Shown here piece after piece: positions 42,170 to 50,343 of a DNA stretch of 64,000 nt. The position numbers and the translations under genes are program-made. The first letter of the stretch is position 1, and each line of letters starts with the position of its first letter. This stretch comes from Bacteroides stercoris ATCC 43183 (GTDB lineage Bacteria > Bacteroidota > Bacteroidia > Bacteroidales > Bacteroidaceae): contig NZ_CP102262.1 in the NCBI RefSeq assembly GCF_025147325.1, positions 3,844,001 to 3,908,000 on the forward strand. Direction: 5' to 3'. The notes beneath the pieces were generated by a model, which made no database searches, was not told the DNA's origin, and saw only the letters and a list, made by a program, of their open reading frames with translations.

Positions 42170-42244
42170 TTCAGGCACGGAGTGCACAGATTTCATGGTT
42201 CTTGCAAACCGGAACCGTGAAATCCATGCACTCCGTGCCTGAAA
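42170..42244. repeat. inverted repeat with GGCACGG core after pfkA
   Basis: Left arm starts TTCAGGCACGGAGTGCA and the right arm ends TGCACTCCGTGCCTGAA. About 32 bp per arm with a few mismatches, loop around TTGCAAACC. Between convergent pfkA and the SDR gene, so a likely two-way terminator. Same core as 9841-9938 and 52300-52383. Confidence 0.85.
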
Positions 42245-42308
42245 AATTATCATAATGCAAGAGGTTCTTTAAATTTTCCTCAACAAGTGTTCTATCCGTT
42301 TTTTGGAT

Positions 42309-43148
42309 TTATAACCACTTCTCCACAATCTTCTCCGTCCTGTTCCACAACTCCTGCATCTGCACATGGCGGGTATACTTCCCGGAAAGATGCTTGGGAC
42401 GGCAACTCGCATTTAAAGTTCCCGTACGTTTTCCGGCATCCTCATCCAGCAGCAGATGAACGGCTGTTGCAGCTCCTTGCCGGGGAGTACGGATAAAAGG
42501 CCGGAATAAGATATCTGTCAGCGGGTCGAACCACATGTGCATCGTTATTATATCGGTAGATACGATACCCGGATCGGCCGCATTCACCACAATCCCTTTT
42601 TCCTTGACCCGATTCGCCAGATTAACGGTAAACAAGGTCAGAGCCAGTTTCGTATTGCTATAAACAGGAATGCGCCAGAAACCTCCTCTCTTTCCAAGAT
42701 GGAAGAAATCCGGAAAGTCGAGACGCCCTATGGCATAAGTACAAGACACCATATTGACAATACGGCTCCCCTTTTCCATCAGAGGAATAAGTTTGCGTGT
42801 CAACAAATAAGGAGCAACATAATTAACACTCACCGTACGTTCCAAACCATCCTCAGTGATGTGACGCCCTGTTTCCATTGTTCCGGCATTATTCATCAGC
42901 AGACTGACGGTATCCCCCCTTTTCAACATTCTTTCGGCAAAAGCCGCCACAGATGCAAGCGAAGCTAAGTCAATGCCCAATACCTCAATATATGGGTTAC
43001 CGGTGTCATGCACCAGCATATCCTTTACCCTTTCCGCTTTTTCCGGACGGTAACAGGCCATGATTATTTTATATCCGGCTGTAGCCACAGCACGGGTTAT
43101 TTCCGTTCCCATACCACCGTCTGCACCGGTTATGATAGCAAGTTTCAT
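42309..43148 (-). CDS. short-chain dehydrogenase in steroid-type operon
   Basis: A 279-residue classical SDR. Cofactor motif TGADGGMG at residues 7-14, NNAG at 86-89, Asn109, and the catalytic triad Ser135, Tyr163, Lys167. Arg34 after the second strand (ACYRPEKAER) suggests NADP(H) preference. Overall layout resembles retinol dehydrogenase/RDH-like SDRs. It lies 40 bp after the flavin reductase gene in an operon with a steroid 5-alpha-reductase homologue, so a 3-hydroxysteroid dehydrogenase is a good inference; direction and 3-alpha/3-beta choice are unknown. The ATG at 43148 is used; an upstream TTG is less likely. Confidence 0.85.
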   Translation of the reverse strand: MKLAIITGADGGMGTEITRAVATAGYKIIMACYRPEKAERVKDMLVHDTGNPYIEVLGIDLASLASVAAFAERMLKRGDTVSLLMNNAGTMETGRHITEDGLERTVSVNYVAPYLLTRKLIPLMEKGSRIVNMVSCTYAIGRLDFPDFFHLGKRGGFWRIPVYSNTKLALTLFTVNLANRVKEKGIVVNAADPGIVSTDIITMHMWFDPLTDILFRPFIRTPRQGAATAVHLLLDEDAGKRTGTLNASCRPKHLSGKYTRHVQMQELWNRTEKIVEKWL

Positions 43149-43188
43149 GTTTACCAAGTATAAATTGCCAATAATAAGAAAGATTCAA

Positions 43189-44412
43189 TCACCCCTTCGC
43201 TTCTATTTTCTCTATCTCCTTTTTCAAGCAGGCAGGCAGTTCTTCCTGCAAATGCTGATGGCAAGCCATTTCTATGGAATACATCCGGGCTATGCAGTAA
43301 TTACTATGCCTACAGCTGCAACGGGCATTCTCCTCCTTGCGCATACGGTTCACAAAGCCCGGTTCGTTGAGCAGGGCGCGTGCCATCTGTACAGCCTCAA
43401 AACCATTGTCCAGCACCTCATCTATCTTGGCACGCGACACCAGTCCGCCTACATATATCAACGGCATCTTCAGCTCTGCACGGAACTTCAGGGCGTCTTC
43501 CAGGAAATAGGCCTCTTTGAATGGCACAGACGGTATCATCCACCTGCCCGCCATGCGTACTCCATACTTCAGCCACCAGCATGTCATATAATGTGTCATG
43601 CTGCGAATCGGCATTTCCCCACGCATCACATACATAGGCGCTTTACTTACAAAACCGCCGCTCAATACCAATCCATGTGCACCCGAGCATTCAAGACGCT
43701 TGGCCACTTGCATCGTCTCATCTATCTCCATGCCTCCCCGGAAACCGTCACGCATGTTCATCTTCACAAGCACTGCCATATCGCTGCCGGCAGCCTTCAT
43801 CACTTCATCCATCACCATATCCATAAAGCGCATGCGGTTTTCCAGAGAACCGCCAAATTCATCTTTGCGATGATTGGTCGAAGGCGAAAGGAACTGGCTG
43901 ATAAGGTAGCCATGTCCGGCATGAATTTCCACTGCATCAAATCCCGCCTCACGGGCCAGATTCACCGCCTTTCCGTAAGCACGTGCCATCTCCGGCAGTT
44001 CACCGGCACGCAAACCACGCACAAAAGTAGGTGAATACAGGTTGAAGCCGCTGCTGGCACCGACCGGGGTACACCCGCAAATACTCTTATGGGACATGTT
44101 TCCGCAATGCCCCAACTGGATTCCGGCAGCAGCACCTTCCGCATGTATCGCATCGGTCAGCTTGCGAAGCCCCGGAATTATTTCAGGGCGCATCCACAAC
44201 TGGCGGTCAAAAGAAAGCCCGCTCTGAGTAACAGCCGCATAAGCCACAGTAGTCATACTGATGCCTCCTGCCGCAACCGAACGGTGATAATCGAGCAACA
44301 TGTCCGAAGGGGCATTTCCGGGACACATACTTTCAAAAGCAGCCGAACGGATGGTACGGTTGCGCAATGTCAGCGGTCCGAAAGTAACCGGAGTGAATAA
44401 TTTTGATTCCAT
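43189..44412 (-). CDS. Old Yellow Enzyme-family reductase, candidate 3-keto-steroid ene-reductase
   Basis: A 407-residue FMN enzyme of the NADH:flavin oxidoreductase family, TIM-barrel domain only. Key positions: GHCGNMSH (101-108), HAGH at 164-167 with Tyr169, then SPSTNHRKDEFGGSLENR (176-193), and GGLVSR/ARALL for phosphate binding. Cys365, Cys367, Cys373 and Cys384 could hold an Fe-S cluster as in BaiCD/BaiH and dienoyl-CoA reductase, though their spacing is unusual. It lacks the C-terminal FAD/NAD domain of BaiCD. Being next to a 5-alpha-reductase homologue suggests reduction of a steroid double bond (for example delta-4, 5-beta type). Start at 44412 is set by MESKLFTPVTFG. Confidence 0.88.
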   Translation of the reverse strand: MESKLFTPVTFGPLTLRNRTIRSAAFESMCPGNAPSDMLLDYHRSVAAGGISMTTVAYAAVTQSGLSFDRQLWMRPEIIPGLRKLTDAIHAEGAAAGIQLGHCGNMSHKSICGCTPVGASSGFNLYSPTFVRGLRAGELPEMARAYGKAVNLAREAGFDAVEIHAGHGYLISQFLSPSTNHRKDEFGGSLENRMRFMDMVMDEVMKAAGSDMAVLVKMNMRDGFRGGMEIDETMQVAKRLECSGAHGLVLSGGFVSKAPMYVMRGEMPIRSMTHYMTCWWLKYGVRMAGRWMIPSVPFKEAYFLEDALKFRAELKMPLIYVGGLVSRAKIDEVLDNGFEAVQMARALLNEPGFVNRMRKEENARCSCRHSNYCIARMYSIEMACHQHLQEELPACLKKEIEKIEAKG

Positions 44413-44450
44413 GTGATAGTTTCCTGATTTATGATTTATGGTTTGTCCTT

Positions 44451-45221
44451 TCAATAGATATAAGGTATGATACGCTTGCGTTTTCCTACCGCCTCATCAC
44501 CGAATTCTTTCCGGTAACGGCCGTAAATGGCATTGGCACGGGGAACGAGATTGGCAAAAGTCCACCACACAAACACCCATGCGGCAGGCGAAGCAGTAAG
44601 TATGGCAAAACCGGTCCATTCTACCAATTCACCGAAATAGTTGGCAGAAGTGACATAGCGATAAAGACCTTTCTCAGGAAGGTAATGATTCGTGTCGCCC
44701 GGCTTACGCAAATGGCGAATCACATGGTCGGCATGAAGATTGATAAGCATACCGGCAAAAAATAACAGAAGCCCCGACCACGCATGAGTCTTCAGCAAAT
44801 AAGTCCAACCACCGGAATACATCCCTTCGGAAGCAAAGTAAAACAGACCGCCAGCCTGCATCATTCCGTTCAGTACATTAAATACAATGCCCATCATCAT
44901 AATAGTTACCGGCATCCGGCTTTTTCCTTTCAGCAGAAAAGGAAAAATAAACGACCTTTGGAAGTAGTGTAGCTGGAACAGCAGAAAGAAAAGATATACC
45001 GGCACGGCAAAGCCTGCCCCGCTCCTGCCCCACAACCAAAACATAACGATAAAGACCGGCGCTTCCATCAATACCCACGCCGCCTTGTTACTAATGGAAT
45101 ATCCCCACGATGCGGTACGGAACATCCCATATCCGGCTTTGACGAAATAAAGAGCGATGAATACAAAAAGCGCAATGACGCACATCACTCCCAAAAACAG
45201 ATGAAACCCTTCTTCGCTCAT
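44451..45221 (-). CDS. steroid 5-alpha-reductase (SRD5A) homologue
   Basis: A 256-residue membrane enzyme with six to seven helices. It is strikingly like the human steroid 5-alpha-reductases: GMLINLHADHVIRHLRKPGD (157-176) followed by YVTSANYFGELVEW (189-202). Residues matching the human SRD5A2 active site are Glu53 and Tyr86 (substrate) and Asn161, Asp165, Asn194, Glu198 (NADPH). The C-terminal IIPYIY also fits. The family reduces the delta-4 double bond of 3-keto steroids using NADPH. First gene of a three-gene operon with the flavin reductase and SDR (38- and 40-bp gaps). The true substrate, bile acid or hormone, is inferred. Confidence 0.9.
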   Translation of the reverse strand: MSEEGFHLFLGVMCVIALFVFIALYFVKAGYGMFRTASWGYSISNKAAWVLMEAPVFIVMFWLWGRSGAGFAVPVYLFFLLFQLHYFQRSFIFPFLLKGKSRMPVTIMMMGIVFNVLNGMMQAGGLFYFASEGMYSGGWTYLLKTHAWSGLLLFFAGMLINLHADHVIRHLRKPGDTNHYLPEKGLYRYVTSANYFGELVEWTGFAILTASPAAWVFVWWTFANLVPRANAIYGRYRKEFGDEAVGKRKRIIPYIY

Positions 45222-45240: not shown

Positions 45241-45249
45241 ACAAATATA
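45241..45249 (-). promoter_or_regulatory. -7 box of the steroid-type operon
   Basis: Minus strand reads TATATTTGT, 19 bp before the 5-alpha-reductase start. No operator is obvious around it. Confidence 0.55.
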
Positions 45250-45359
45250 GGGAAAACCTGTAACAATCAAATCGTTTTCCCGCAGCAATTATCAAAAACA
45301 TACAGAAACGGATAACGCAAAGAGCGTGGATGTTTATCCGTTCCGCCACGGGAAAATGA

Positions 45360-45406
45360 ATAAGGTATCGCTGTCCGGCTTTCCAACCGCAACAACGATA
45401 CCTTAT
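45360..45406 (-). terminator. possible terminator after citrate synthase
   Basis: Arms ATAAGGTATCG and CGATACCTTAT form a perfect 11-bp stem around a 25-base loop, 39 bp past the gltA stop. No long T run follows, so termination is uncertain. Confidence 0.4.
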
Positions 45407-45444
45407 ACGACCCGGCAATCCGAGGTCTGTGCTTTGAAACGGAT

Positions 45445-46788
45445 CTACCGCTTCTTAATAGGAATGTATGCTACTTCTTCCAATACATTCTTATATGCCG
45501 GACGAATAATGCGCTTACCTTCGAAGTTCAACTCTTCATTACGATGTGCACACCAGCCCACGATACGCGCCATGGCAAACAGCGGAGTAAATATTTCCTG
45601 CGGCAACCCGATCATTTCATATACGAAACCGGAGTAAAAATCCACATTGCTCGAAACCGTCTTGCCGTTGTTCTTCACACGGCCGAAAACTTCGATGGCT
45701 CGTTCTTCCAGCAATTCAAGGAAAGCAAACTCACGCTCTTTCCCTTTCTCGCGGGCAAGGTCGCGGGCAAGTTCCTTTAAAAGTATGGCACGAGGGTCTG
45801 AAATGGTATAGACGGCATGTCCGATACCGTATATCAATCCCGTCTTGTTATATACCTCCTTGTTCAGCATACGGGTGAAATAAGTGTCAATCTCGTCTAC
45901 ATTCGTCCAATCCCGGATATTCTCCTGCAAATGGTGGAACATGTCGGTAACCTGGATATTGGCGCCACCGTGAAGCGGGCCTTTCAGGGAACCGATGCCC
46001 GCAGCGATAGCAGAATAGGTATCAGTTCCGGTAGAGGACGTTACGCGTACGGTGAACGTAGAGTTGTTACCGCCGCCGTGCTCCGCCTGCAACACCAGCA
46101 ACAGGTCAAGGGTACGGGCATCCAGTTCCGTATAATCCTTTTTCAGCATATACAGGAAATTCTCCGCGAGAGAAAGATTCTCCTGCGGATGCCGGATATG
46201 CAACGAACGGCCGTGAGTGGCATGGCGAAGCATATTGAAAGCATAGGCTATGATGGTGGGGAACTTCGAAATAAGGTCTATGCTCTGGCGCATCAGATTA
46301 TCGCGCGACGTATCATCGGCATTCGGGTCAAAGCGGTACATCTCGAGCACGCTTCGCGCCAGGATATTCATTATATTATTCCCTTCAAGCTCGATGATGT
46401 TCATCTTCGTTTTCTGTTCCAACGGCATATTATCGTTAATCAGCTCACGGAAAGAAGCCAGTTCTTCCCTGTCGGGCAAACGGCCTGAAAGCAGCAGATA
46501 CGCCACTTCTTCAAAGCCGAAACGTTTCTCTTTGAGAATGGCATGTGCCAAATCCTCAAGGTCGTAGCCACGGTAGAACAATTTGCCCGGAATAGGCTTC
46601 AGACCTCCGCCCGGAATGCGCTCGTACCCCACTACGTTGCCAATCTTGGTGAGCCCAACCAGCACACCTGTACCGTCTTCATTACGCAATCCGCGCTTCA
46701 CATCAAACTTCTTGAACAGTTCGTTCTCAATCCGGGTCGCTTCTTTCAGGTCTTCGGAAAGTTTGTAAATCAAATATTCTTTCTTCAT
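45445..46788 (-). CDS. gltA: citrate synthase
   Basis: Condenses acetyl-CoA and oxaloacetate. The 447-residue protein has LKPIPGKLFYRGYDLEDLA near residue 83, catalytic His in GPLHGGAN and GIGHAVY, and Asp in the C-terminal NVDFYSG. It is last in an acn-icd-gltA operon with only 7 bp from icd, so the three enzymes make 2-oxoglutarate for glutamate synthesis. 2-Methylcitrate synthase is less likely given the partners. Confidence 0.95.
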   Translation of the reverse strand: MKKEYLIYKLSEDLKEATRIENELFKKFDVKRGLRNEDGTGVLVGLTKIGNVVGYERIPGGGLKPIPGKLFYRGYDLEDLAHAILKEKRFGFEEVAYLLLSGRLPDREELASFRELINDNMPLEQKTKMNIIELEGNNIMNILARSVLEMYRFDPNADDTSRDNLMRQSIDLISKFPTIIAYAFNMLRHATHGRSLHIRHPQENLSLAENFLYMLKKDYTELDARTLDLLLVLQAEHGGGNNSTFTVRVTSSTGTDTYSAIAAGIGSLKGPLHGGANIQVTDMFHHLQENIRDWTNVDEIDTYFTRMLNKEVYNKTGLIYGIGHAVYTISDPRAILLKELARDLAREKGKEREFAFLELLEERAIEVFGRVKNNGKTVSSNVDFYSGFVYEMIGLPQEIFTPLFAMARIVGWCAHRNEELNFEGKRIIRPAYKNVLEEVAYIPIKKR

Positions 46789-46795
46789 AATATTT

Positions 46796-47977
46796 TTATT
46801 TTTTCTGGTTTATGGGGGAATTATTTGCGGAAGCTTCTATCCTGTTCACGATTTCCCGTGTAAAAGCCGATGTAGACAACGGGACACCACCCTGCATGAA
46901 GCGGGCCAAATCGACTGTAGCACGACCTTCTGTGAAACTGTTCTCCAGTGCTTCCTCTATCAGCAAGGCGGCCTCTTTCCAACCCAGATGTTCGAGCATC
47001 ATCACCGCCGAAAGAATCATGGAACACGGATTCACAATGTCTTTTCCGGCAATATTGGGAGCCGTGCCATGAGTGGCCTCAAAAATGGCATGTCCCGTCC
47101 TGTAATTAATGTTGGCTCCCGGAGCGATACCGATGCCGCCCACCATAGCAGCCAACTGGTCGGAAATATAATCACCGTTCAAATTCAGAGTGGCAATGAC
47201 CGAGTATTCTTCGGGAACAAGCAAGGTATTCTGCAAAAAGGCATCGGCAATGCAATCCTTGACAACAAGACGTCCCTCCGCTATATCTTTTCCAAACTCA
47301 CGCTCCGCCAGCTCATAGCCCCATTTCTTGAAGCCGCCTTCGGTAAACTTCATGATATTGCCTTTGTGTACCAGCGTTACAGAGGGCAGACCGTTTTCGA
47401 GCGCATAACGGCAAGCCGCACGCACCAGCCGCTCCGTTCCCTCTTTAGACACAGGTTTCACGCCAAAAGATGAAGTTTCGGGAAAACGCACCTTGGTCAC
47501 GCCCATCTCATCATGCAGGAAGCGATAGAACTTTTCGGCTTCCGGTGTTCCGGCTTCCCATTCGATACCGGCGTAGATATCTTCCGTATTCTCACGGAAT
47601 ACGCACATGTTTACCTTCTGCGGTTCTTTCACCGGCGAAACTACGCCTTTATACCAACGCACGGGACGCAGGCACACATACAAATCGAGTGTCTGGCGCA
47701 ACGCCACGTTCAGCGAACGGATACCGCCGCCGACCGGTGTAGTCAACGGCCCCTTAATACCTATTTTATAAGTGCGGAATGCTTCCATCGTTTCTTCCGG
47801 CAACCAGGAACCCGTTTCATTAAATGCCCGCTCACCTGCCAGCACTTCTTTCCATCCGATACTCCGGCTGTCTCCATAGGCTTTCTTCAAGGCTGCATCC
47901 ACCACAGCCTGCATGGACGGAGTGACCTCTGCCCCTACTCCGTCACCTGTAATAAAAGGTACAGTAATCTTTTCCAT
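46796..47977 (-). CDS. icd: isocitrate dehydrogenase
   Basis: Oxidatively decarboxylates isocitrate to 2-oxoglutarate. 393 residues with [12 protein letters not shown], the substrate loop with [13 protein letters not shown] and [14 protein letters not shown], and the metal-binding block [21 protein letters not shown]. The [14 protein letters not shown] sequence and the [10 protein letters not shown] block indicate the isocitrate rather than isopropylmalate branch; NADP is likely. It lies between acn (3 bp) and gltA (7 bp). Confidence 0.95.
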
Positions 47978-47980
47978 ATT

Positions 47981-50224
47981 CTATCGTGCATTTAATGCAG
48001 AGCCGGCACGGAACCAGCCTATCTGCTGTTCATTATACGTATGTTGTACTTCGAAGCTTTCCTTGCTGCCGTCCTCGTGATGAAGCACCACTTTCAGGTT
48101 ACGTCCCGGAGCAAAGTCTTTCAAGCCGACAACGGAAAGCAAGTCATGCTCCCGAATTTTATCATAATCCGCCTTATCGGTAAAGGTCAGCGCCAGCATG
48201 CCCTGTTTCTTCAAATTCGTCTCGTGGATACGTGCAAAGCTCTTTGCCAGTATGACACGTACATTCAGGAAACGCGGTTCCATAGCGGCATGTTCACGGC
48301 TGGAACCCTCGCCATAGTTTTCTTCGGCAACGACAATCGAAGGAATCCCTTCGGACTTATACAGTTTGGCTGTACCGGACACCGTTCCGTACGTATTTGT
48401 AGAACGGTTCCACACTTTATTCGTTTCTCCGTTAAAGGCATTGACAGCCCCCATCAGCATATTATCCGAAATATTCTCCAAATGCCCGCGGAAACGAAGC
48501 CACGGACCTGCCATCGAGATATGATCGGTGGTACACTTACCCTGCGTTTTAATCAGCAGAGGCATATTCAGCAAATCCTCTCCGTCCCAAGCCGGGAAAG
48601 GAGCAAGCAGTTGCAGGCGTTGCGACTGGGGAGCCACCGCAATATCCGTCTTTGCATGGGAAGGTGCGATATATCCCTCGCTCCCTGCCGTAAATCCTTC
48701 CGGCGGCAGCTCTTCGCCTATCGGTTCGGAGAGTTTAACCTGTTCGCCATCGGCATTGAGCAATGTATCTTTCAGCGGATTGAAACACAAATCTCCGGCA
48801 ATGGTCAATGCCATTGTCAGCTCGGGAGAGGCTACAAAGGCATACGTATTCGGATTTCCATCCGCACGCTTGGCAAAGTTCCGGTTGAAAGAAGTCACAA
48901 TAGAATTCTTACGAGTAGGATCATCGGTCACACGCTTCCATTGTCCGATACAAGGGCCGCAGGCATTTGCCATAATTGTAGCGCCTATTTTTTCAAAAGC
49001 GTCAATCATACCGTCACGCTCTGCGGTTGCACGTATGCGTTCCGAACCCGGATTGACAATCAGCGGAGCAGCCGCACGCAACCGCTTCTCTGTTACCTGA
49101 TGCGCCAAAGACACCGCACGGCTCAAATCCTGGTAGGATGAATTGGTACAGGAACCGATAAGCCCTACCTCCATCTTACAGGAATAGCCGTTCTTCAAAA
49201 CCTTCTCGGCAAACTCCGAAACAGGCGTGGCGGCATCCGGAGTAAACGGTCCGTTGATATAAGGCTCCAATGTGGAAAGGTCTATGTCGATAATACGGTC
49301 ATAGTATTTCTCCGGATTGGCAACTACTTCATCATCGGCACGAAGCCCTTCGGCAACGGCAGTAGCCATATCTGCCACTTCCGCACGTCCGGTAGCTTTC
49401 AGATAGGCAGCCATACGCTCATCATAAGGGAAAAGAGAAGTCGTAGCTCCCACTTCCGCACCCATGTTGCAAATCGTAGCCTTTCCGGTAGCTGAAAGTG
49501 AAGCAGTACCCGGACCGAAATATTCGATAATGGCATTTGTTCCGCCTTTTACAGTCAAAATTCCTGCCAGTTTCAAGATAACATCTTTAGGAGCAGCCCA
49601 TCCGTTTAATTTTCCAGTGAGGCGCACGCCAATCAAGCGGGGCATCTTCAACTCCCATTCCATACCTGTCATCACATCCACCGCATCAGCACCGCCGACA
49701 CCGATAGCCACCATTCCCAAACCGCCGGCGTTCGGGGTATGAGAATCGGTACCTACCATCATGCCGCCGGGAAAAGCATAGTTTTCCAACACCACCTGAT
49801 GGATGATACCTGCCCCGGGTTGCCAGAAACCGATACCGTAACGGGAAGAAACATCCCGAAGAAAATTATACACCTCCTCATTCGTTTTGGTTGCAGTGGC
49901 AATATCTTCTTTCGCTCCTTTATAAGCCTGAATCAGATGGTCGCAATGTACGGTCGAAGGAACAGCCACCTCATCACGTCCTGCATTCATAAACTGTAAT
50001 AATGCCATCTGTGCAGTTGCATCCTGCATAGCCACACGGTCGGGCCGGAAGTTCACATAGTCTTCGCCGCGTTTATAGTCTTTCACATTCTTCTCATCGT
50101 ACAAATGAGCATACAAGATTTTTTCCGCTAAAGTCAACGGACGTTGCAATATCGTCCGAATGCGTTCTATTTTCCCCTCATAAAGTGTATAAAACGCTTT
50201 AAGCATTGCTAAATCATATACCAT
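47981..50224 (-). CDS. acn: aconitate hydratase
   Basis: Interconverts citrate and isocitrate with a [4Fe-4S] cluster. Cluster cysteines appear in [13 protein letters not shown] and [27 protein letters not shown] and the C-terminal swivel domain with [20 protein letters not shown] are also present. The 747 residues match the mitochondrial-type enzyme. Start at 50224 is chosen over one 8 codons upstream because [12 protein letters not shown] is the usual N-terminus. First gene of the acn-icd-gltA operon. Confidence 0.96.
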
Positions 50225-50343
50225 AACCACTCTTTTTAAAAAATTCAATATTGTAAATATTACAAATTAATACAATAAACAAATCATAATAAGGAAAAGT
50301 TTAACAAAATAAAGCATTTCTTCCCCTAAAGGCTGAGATTTAT

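What the first reader, a model, noticed from the sequence alone, without database searches (positions are those of the whole stretch)
42309..45221. Candidate steroid or bile-acid reduction operon with a human-like 5-alpha-reductase
Three minus-strand genes with 38- and 40-bp gaps encode an SRD5A homologue, an Old Yellow Enzyme reductase and an SDR. The first has the human active-site equivalents Glu53, Tyr86, Asn161, Asp165, Asn194 and Glu198. The second has HAGH and four C-terminal Cys, as in Bai-type ene-reductases. The SDR has an intact Ser135/Tyr163/Lys167 triad. Known: a similar set (5AR, 5BR, 3-beta-HSDH) makes isoallolithocholic acid from 3-oxo-delta-4-lithocholic acid in Odoribacteraceae and Parabacteroides. 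Inferred: this Bacteroides can reduce delta-4-3-keto steroids and epimerise C3.
Basis: partly seen in the sequence, partly recalled or inferred. Interest (0 to 1): 0.92.

Follow-up and report, generated by a model that had tools for sequence, protein, structure and literature searches.

The report
Known gut steroid-reducing operon, another Bacteroides
Three neighbouring genes in a gut Bacteroides probably flatten and reduce bile acids or related steroids; the same kind of gene set is already reported from Bacteroides, and what is less ordinary is that the first enzyme's active site differs from the human one it was said to match.

Summary
In detail: three minus-strand genes (SRD5A homologue, Old Yellow Enzyme, SDR) lie at the stated coordinates with 38- and 40-bp gaps. 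They form one operon with a Bacteroides-type promoter motif in front, and are kept or lost together in the genus (87 of 158 genomes have all three, 62 none). The SRD5A model fits PbSRD5A and human SRD5A2 far better than any other structure listed. The system is not new: reviews credit Bacteroides and Parabacteroides with this 5AR/5BR/3-beta-HSDH set, which makes isoalloLCA. Extra details: the OYE aligns best with Fe-S-type enzymes but lacks their FAD/NAD domain, five genomes keep SRD5A plus SDR without the OYE, and six loci of other families carry a second SDR. Substrate, cofactor and stereochemistry are untested. New member of a known kind.

The parts
44451..45221 (-). SRD5A-type membrane reductase, 256 aa (5AR); motif M52-E53-Y86
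43189..44412 (-). Old Yellow Enzyme barrel plus short Cys-containing C-terminus, 407 aa (putative 5BR); H164/H167/Y169; C103, C367, C373, C384 invariant
   Evidence: PF00724 188 bits; nearest NCBIfam models mycofactocin OYE and BaiCD, far below cut-off; AF2 pLDDT 91.7; full-length match to TMADH/NCR/DCR; conservation
42309..43148 (-). Short-chain dehydrogenase, 279 aa (putative 3-beta-HSDH); S135/Y163/K167
   Evidence: PF00106 107.3 bits; triad invariant in 79 of 79 rows
45242..45271 (-). Bacteroides-type promoter motif TTTG-N18-TATATTTG ending 20 bp before the SRD5A ATG
   Evidence: core TAnnTTTG within 150 bp of SRD5A in 55 of 80 loci against 7.2 expected, full motif in 14 of 80 against 0.08; core before OYE 4 of 72 (4.7 expected), before SDR 1 of 66 (2.5 expected). 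The consensus itself is recalled
42175..42255 (.). Very stable hairpin between the convergent SDR and pfkA ends; possible transcript end, but no run of T follows the stem on either strand
   Evidence: -43.6 kcal/mol, z -8.9; flanks read; not listed by the terminator scan
45340..45440 (-). Hairpin after citrate synthase, possibly ends the upstream transcript
   Evidence: -42.6 kcal/mol, z -4.8; not listed by the terminator scan

Best explanation
A three-gene operon for A-ring processing of 3-keto steroids, most likely bile acids. The FMN enzyme (OYE) interconverts 5-beta-3-keto and delta-4-3-keto forms. The membrane SRD5A protein adds hydride from a nicotinamide cofactor to the alpha face of C5, giving the flat 5-alpha-3-keto steroid. 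The SDR reduces the 3-ketone, most likely to the 3-beta alcohol. The net product from 3-oxo-LCA would be isoalloLCA. Shown here: gene identities, operon structure, co-inheritance, predicted fold, retained Glu/Tyr pair and SDR triad. Inferred: substrates, direction of the OYE, stereochemistry, cofactor.
Against: Gln56, whose A/L mutants abolish SRD5A2 activity (PMC7815742, section 9 read), is Met here. Three NADPH contacts differ; mutations in the NADPH contacts of PbSRD5A impaired activity (PMC7815742, section 8 read), and human H231R is listed with reduced activity (PMC9966410, passage). No sequence of a biochemically tested gut 5AR/5BR/HSDH was in hand for direct comparison. 33 of 93 good genus genomes lack the SRD5A gene. 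The 60 best solved relatives shown for the SDR (of 360) are general SDRs, none named an HSDH. Two of the 63 compact loci have broken OYE frames (L058, L069).
Confidence: 0.75

Rival explanations
1. The operon acts mainly on neutral steroids (hormones, plant or cholesterol-derived enones) rather than bile acids; same chemistry, other natural substrate.
For: SRD5A fold is that of hormone reductases; five genomes keep SRD5A plus SDR without OYE, which suits substrates that are already delta-4-3-keto. A review lists Bacteroides 5-alpha-reductases in an androgen table, citing the bile-acid paper Sato 2021 (PMC12789469). PMC11545266 (passage) says that Bacteroides species likely used progesterone, citing a 1982 study.
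Against: The activities that reviews report for Bacteroides homologues are on bile acids; no assay of these proteins on hormones was seen in the listings and passages.
Confidence: 0.3
2. The SRD5A-SDR pair reduces a polyprenoid, as human SRD5A3 with DHRSX does in dolichol synthesis, and the OYE is an accessory ene-reductase.
For: The SDR's best NCBIfam models (PRK06196, PRK06197; below cut-off) are a group that, by recall, lies near retinol-type SDRs such as DHRSX; what look by reading like ispH and polyprenyl synthase genes lie within 8 kb.
Against: All three genes are absent from 62 of 158 genus genomes, unlike a core lipid step. No SRD5A3 was compared, so the subfamily itself was not tested.
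Confidence: 0.06
3. General enone detoxification: a set of promiscuous reductases with no dedicated steroid role.
For: OYEs and SDRs are often promiscuous (general knowledge, no call).
Against: Three-gene co-inheritance and a membrane SRD5A fold with conserved Glu/Tyr.
Confidence: 0.1

Closest known systems
Bacteroidales isoalloLCA gene set 5AR-5BR-3-beta-HSDH (Sato 2021, Li 2021; primary papers not held, known here through reviews and recall)
   Same: Same three enzyme classes side by side, in Bacteroides, Phocaeicola and Parabacteroides
   Different: Identity to the tested proteins could not be measured; gene order and neighbours of the published clusters not seen
PbSRD5A (7c83) and human SRD5A2 (7bw1)
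   Same: Fold, Glu/Tyr pair, 10 of the 13 residues named as hydrogen-bonding NADPH in PbSRD5A
   Different: Gln of QEY is Met; Arg34/Lys35 of loop 1, Tyr177/178 and His230/231 are Met33, His179 and Ile232
BaiCD, OsrB-type and FadH-type Fe-S ene-reductases
   Same: OYE barrel and C-terminal Cys region; full-length fold match to DCR, NCR, TMADH
   Different: No FAD/NAD domain (407 aa against profile length 642); HxxH pair as in YqjM; one of the four Cys is not conserved
BaiP/BaiJ allo-bile-acid reductases of Firmicutes (PMC9645264)
   Same: Same reaction type
   Different: The paper states that they differ from the membrane-associated Bacteroidetes enzymes (abstract and passages)

Membership tests
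SRD5A / Steroid_dh superfamily (PF02544) | Pfam model above curated cut-off | tested here: met
   124.5 bits against 22.6
SRD5A / Steroid_dh superfamily (PF02544) | SRD5A membrane fold | tested here: met
SRD5A with the QEY motif (PbSRD5A, human SRD5A1/2) | Glu57 and Tyr91 | tested here: met
   E53, Y86; 128 of 128 rows
SRD5A with the QEY motif (PbSRD5A, human SRD5A1/2) | Gln56 | tested here: not met
   M52; Met in 128 of 128 Bacteroidales rows, three loci counted twice
SRD5A with the QEY motif (PbSRD5A, human SRD5A1/2) | delta-4-3-ketosteroid 5-alpha reduction | not testable with these tools
   needs an assay
Bacteroidales isoalloLCA operon | 5AR, OYE and SDR genes co-located | tested here: met
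Bacteroidales isoalloLCA operon | orthology to the tested P. merdae, Odoribacter or B. theta proteins | tested here: inconclusive
   those sequences were not in hand; syntenic homologues in P. vulgatus and P. faecalis
Bacteroidales isoalloLCA operon | conversion of 3-oxo-delta-4-LCA or 3-oxoLCA | not testable with these tools
   needs an assay
BaiCD | NCBIfam NF041087 cut-off and full length | tested here: not met
   182 bits against 825; best stretch covers profile 3-261 of 642
BaiCD | four conserved Fe-S cysteines | tested here: inconclusive
   three invariant, C365 in 72 of 84; a cluster cannot be seen with these tools
Classical SDR | Ser-Tyr-Lys triad | tested here: met
   S135, Y163, K167 in 79 of 79 rows
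3-beta-HSDH | 3-beta stereospecificity on steroids | not testable with these tools
   needs an assay
SRD5A3/DHRSX polyprenoid pair | membership of the SRD5A3 subfamily | not tested
   no SRD5A3 sequence or structure was compared

The most novel reading that the evidence does not exclude
The gut Bacteroidales SRD5A clade is a distinct 5-alpha-reductase type. Met replaces the catalytic Gln (shared with the divergent Bacteroidales rows and with two loci from outside the order), and on a long, well-supported stem branch the clade mostly lost three NADPH contacts (Lys/Arg of loop 1 to Met/Ile, Tyr178 to His, His231 to Ile/Val/Leu). It may have switched cofactor preference (for example to NADH) or hydride supply in anaerobes, working beside an Fe-S-type OYE stripped of its FAD/NAD domain.
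Probability: 0.2. Interest if true: 0.55.

Novelty: new member of a known kind. Interest (0 to 1): 0.35.

Why it matters
IsoalloLCA is reported to promote Treg cells (review passage) and to inhibit C. difficile and other Gram-positive bacteria (review passage). This locus adds another Bacteroides lineage with the gene set and gives residue-level tests (Met52, Met33, His179, Ile232) of how far rules from human SRD5A2 carry over to gut enzymes. The OYE-less and four-gene variants predict which lineages can start from 5-beta steroids and which might handle both C3 epimers.

Full report
OBSERVATION. Pfam assigns Steroid_dh, Oxidored_FMN and adh_short well above cut-off; NCBIfam gives no match for the first at E 0.001 and only sub-cut-off matches among those shown for the others. 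The window is part of a single-contig 4,007,931-bp genome that holds one match to the SRD5A gene. Nearest named relatives are Bacteroides species (B. propionicigenes 87%, B. gallinarum and B. rodentium 83%, best 80 of 203 kept). No call names the species; from memory I would place it near B. stercoris/B. eggerthii.

OPERON. A TTTG-N18-TATATTTG element ends 20 bp before the SRD5A start. The core TAnnTTTG (consensus recalled) occurs within 150 bp upstream of SRD5A in 55 of 80 loci (7.2 expected from shuffles) and the full element in 14 of 80 (0.08 expected), against core 4 of 72 (4.7) for OYE and 1 of 66 (2.5) for SDR (the 80 include the window itself, and loci with under 150 bp upstream are left out). 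Stable hairpins lie after citrate synthase and between SDR and the convergent pfkA. The second has no run of T after it on either strand, and the simple terminator scan listed neither. In 63 of 80 fetched loci the three genes are in compact order (SRD5A-OYE gap up to 1600, OYE-SDR up to 300 bp); in 26 of the 63 the SDR start, as chosen by my script, overlaps the OYE end by 1-14 bp. The other 17 comprise contig ends (L019, L044, L049), SRD5A without a found partner (L013, L072, L075, L077, L080), SRD5A plus OYE without a nearby SDR (L046, L047, L048, L050, L055, L056, L079), one whose SDR frame was not read cleanly (L074) and one with SDR but no OYE (L081).

CO-INHERITANCE. In 158 genomes of the genus SRD5A is found at E 0.001 in 95, OYE at E 1e-60 in 89 and SDR at E 1e-50 in 94. 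All three are in 87, none in 62, and nine are partial. Of the nine, five (G047, G074, G076, G077, G079) have SRD5A directly followed by SDR with no OYE; G084 has SRD5A only. In G026 the OYE match begins at the first base of its contig, and in G123 the OYE ends within about 240 bp of a contig end, so these two may be assembly gaps. In G133 the SDR match starts at base 2 of another contig, but its SRD5A contig (L013) runs on for 3 kb without an OYE. SRD5A and OYE are on one strand within 3 kb in 87 of 88 genomes with both (in G087 they are on different contigs), OYE and SDR in 87 of 87. Relatedness was not corrected for.

WIDER DISTRIBUTION. In the order, 94 of 392 sampled genomes have SRD5A at E 1e-30, in 97 places: the own one, 55 at 46-73% identity and 41 at 33-43%. 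In a phylum sample of 198, only the own genome and two others match at E 1e-10. I fetched 20 of the 41 divergent places; 0 of 20 have OYE or SDR nearby at E 1e-8. I fetched 20 of the 55 closer ones; 14 of 20 have OYE next to SRD5A and 6 do not (L109, L117-L121). Six of the 14 (L104, L106, L107, L108, L111, L114) carry, by reading, a second and different SDR between OYE and the SDR homologue: a four-gene form. The own genome has no close copy of that second SDR (best 31%).

SDR. Ser135, Tyr163 and Lys167 are invariant in 79 of 79 rows (three duplicates dropped). The best models are PRK06196/PRK06197, below cut-off. One SDR gives a 3-alcohol of one face; epimerisation from 3-alpha needs a partner enzyme, which could come from another bacterium or from one of the genome's other SDRs.

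LITERATURE. [quoted passage not shown] PMC12697870 Bacteroidetes gene clusters with 5BR, 5AR and 3-beta-HSDH; PMC11271093 Bacteroides making isoalloLCA with these enzymes; PMC12692668 Table 1 5AR of P. goldsteinii, B. theta and A. onderdonkii; PMC12789469 Table 3 B. dorei and others, citing Sato 2021; PMC10672800 Bacteroides among the genera that make isoalloLCA. Hence the capacity is already described for the genus. The passages read do not mention the Met-Glu-Tyr motif, the OYE-less form or the four-gene form, but I made no search aimed at those points, so I do not claim that they are unpublished.

VERDICT. A real and well-organised operon, best read as the known Bacteroidales steroid/bile-acid A-ring reduction set; a new member of a known kind.

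Noticed in passing
L027 (B. clarus) and L028 (B. cutis): In one search their SRD5A genes pair (100/99) outside the window's four-row SRD5A group (99/98), while B. clarus SDR pairs with B. propionicigenes inside the window's group (100/92) and its OYE is 95% identical (SRD5A 74%): possible replacement or recombination of the first gene. In the larger tree, without B. cutis, B. clarus SRD5A sits beside B. fluxus.
   Followed up: partly
L104, L106, L107, L108, L111, L114: Four-gene form SRD5A-OYE-SDR-SDR in other families. In the two extra SDRs scanned (L106, L108) the best NCBIfam model is mycolate_SDR, below cut-off.
   Followed up: partly
G047, G074, G076, G077, G079 (L122-L126): SRD5A directly followed by SDR with the OYE missing, gaps 27-130 bp.
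   Followed up: partly
G078, G097, L058, L069: Decayed copies: split or stop-containing SRD5A or OYE matches.
   Followed up: no
G015, G126: Two complete-looking operon copies in one genome; G126 is a fragmented 72%-complete assembly and may be a mixture.
   Followed up: no
window 42175-42255: Very stable hairpin between convergent SDR and pfkA (z -8.9) with no run of T after it.
   Followed up: partly
window 45445-50248: By reading, citrate synthase, isocitrate dehydrogenase and aconitase genes lie upstream on the same strand; the first two are also upstream of the operon in several relatives.
   Followed up: no
G000:C1:2981755-2982612: CBAH-family gene (the family of bile salt hydrolases) elsewhere in the genome, 160.6 bits; the family also rings in 4 of 14 control genomes, B. 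subtilis among them.
   Followed up: no
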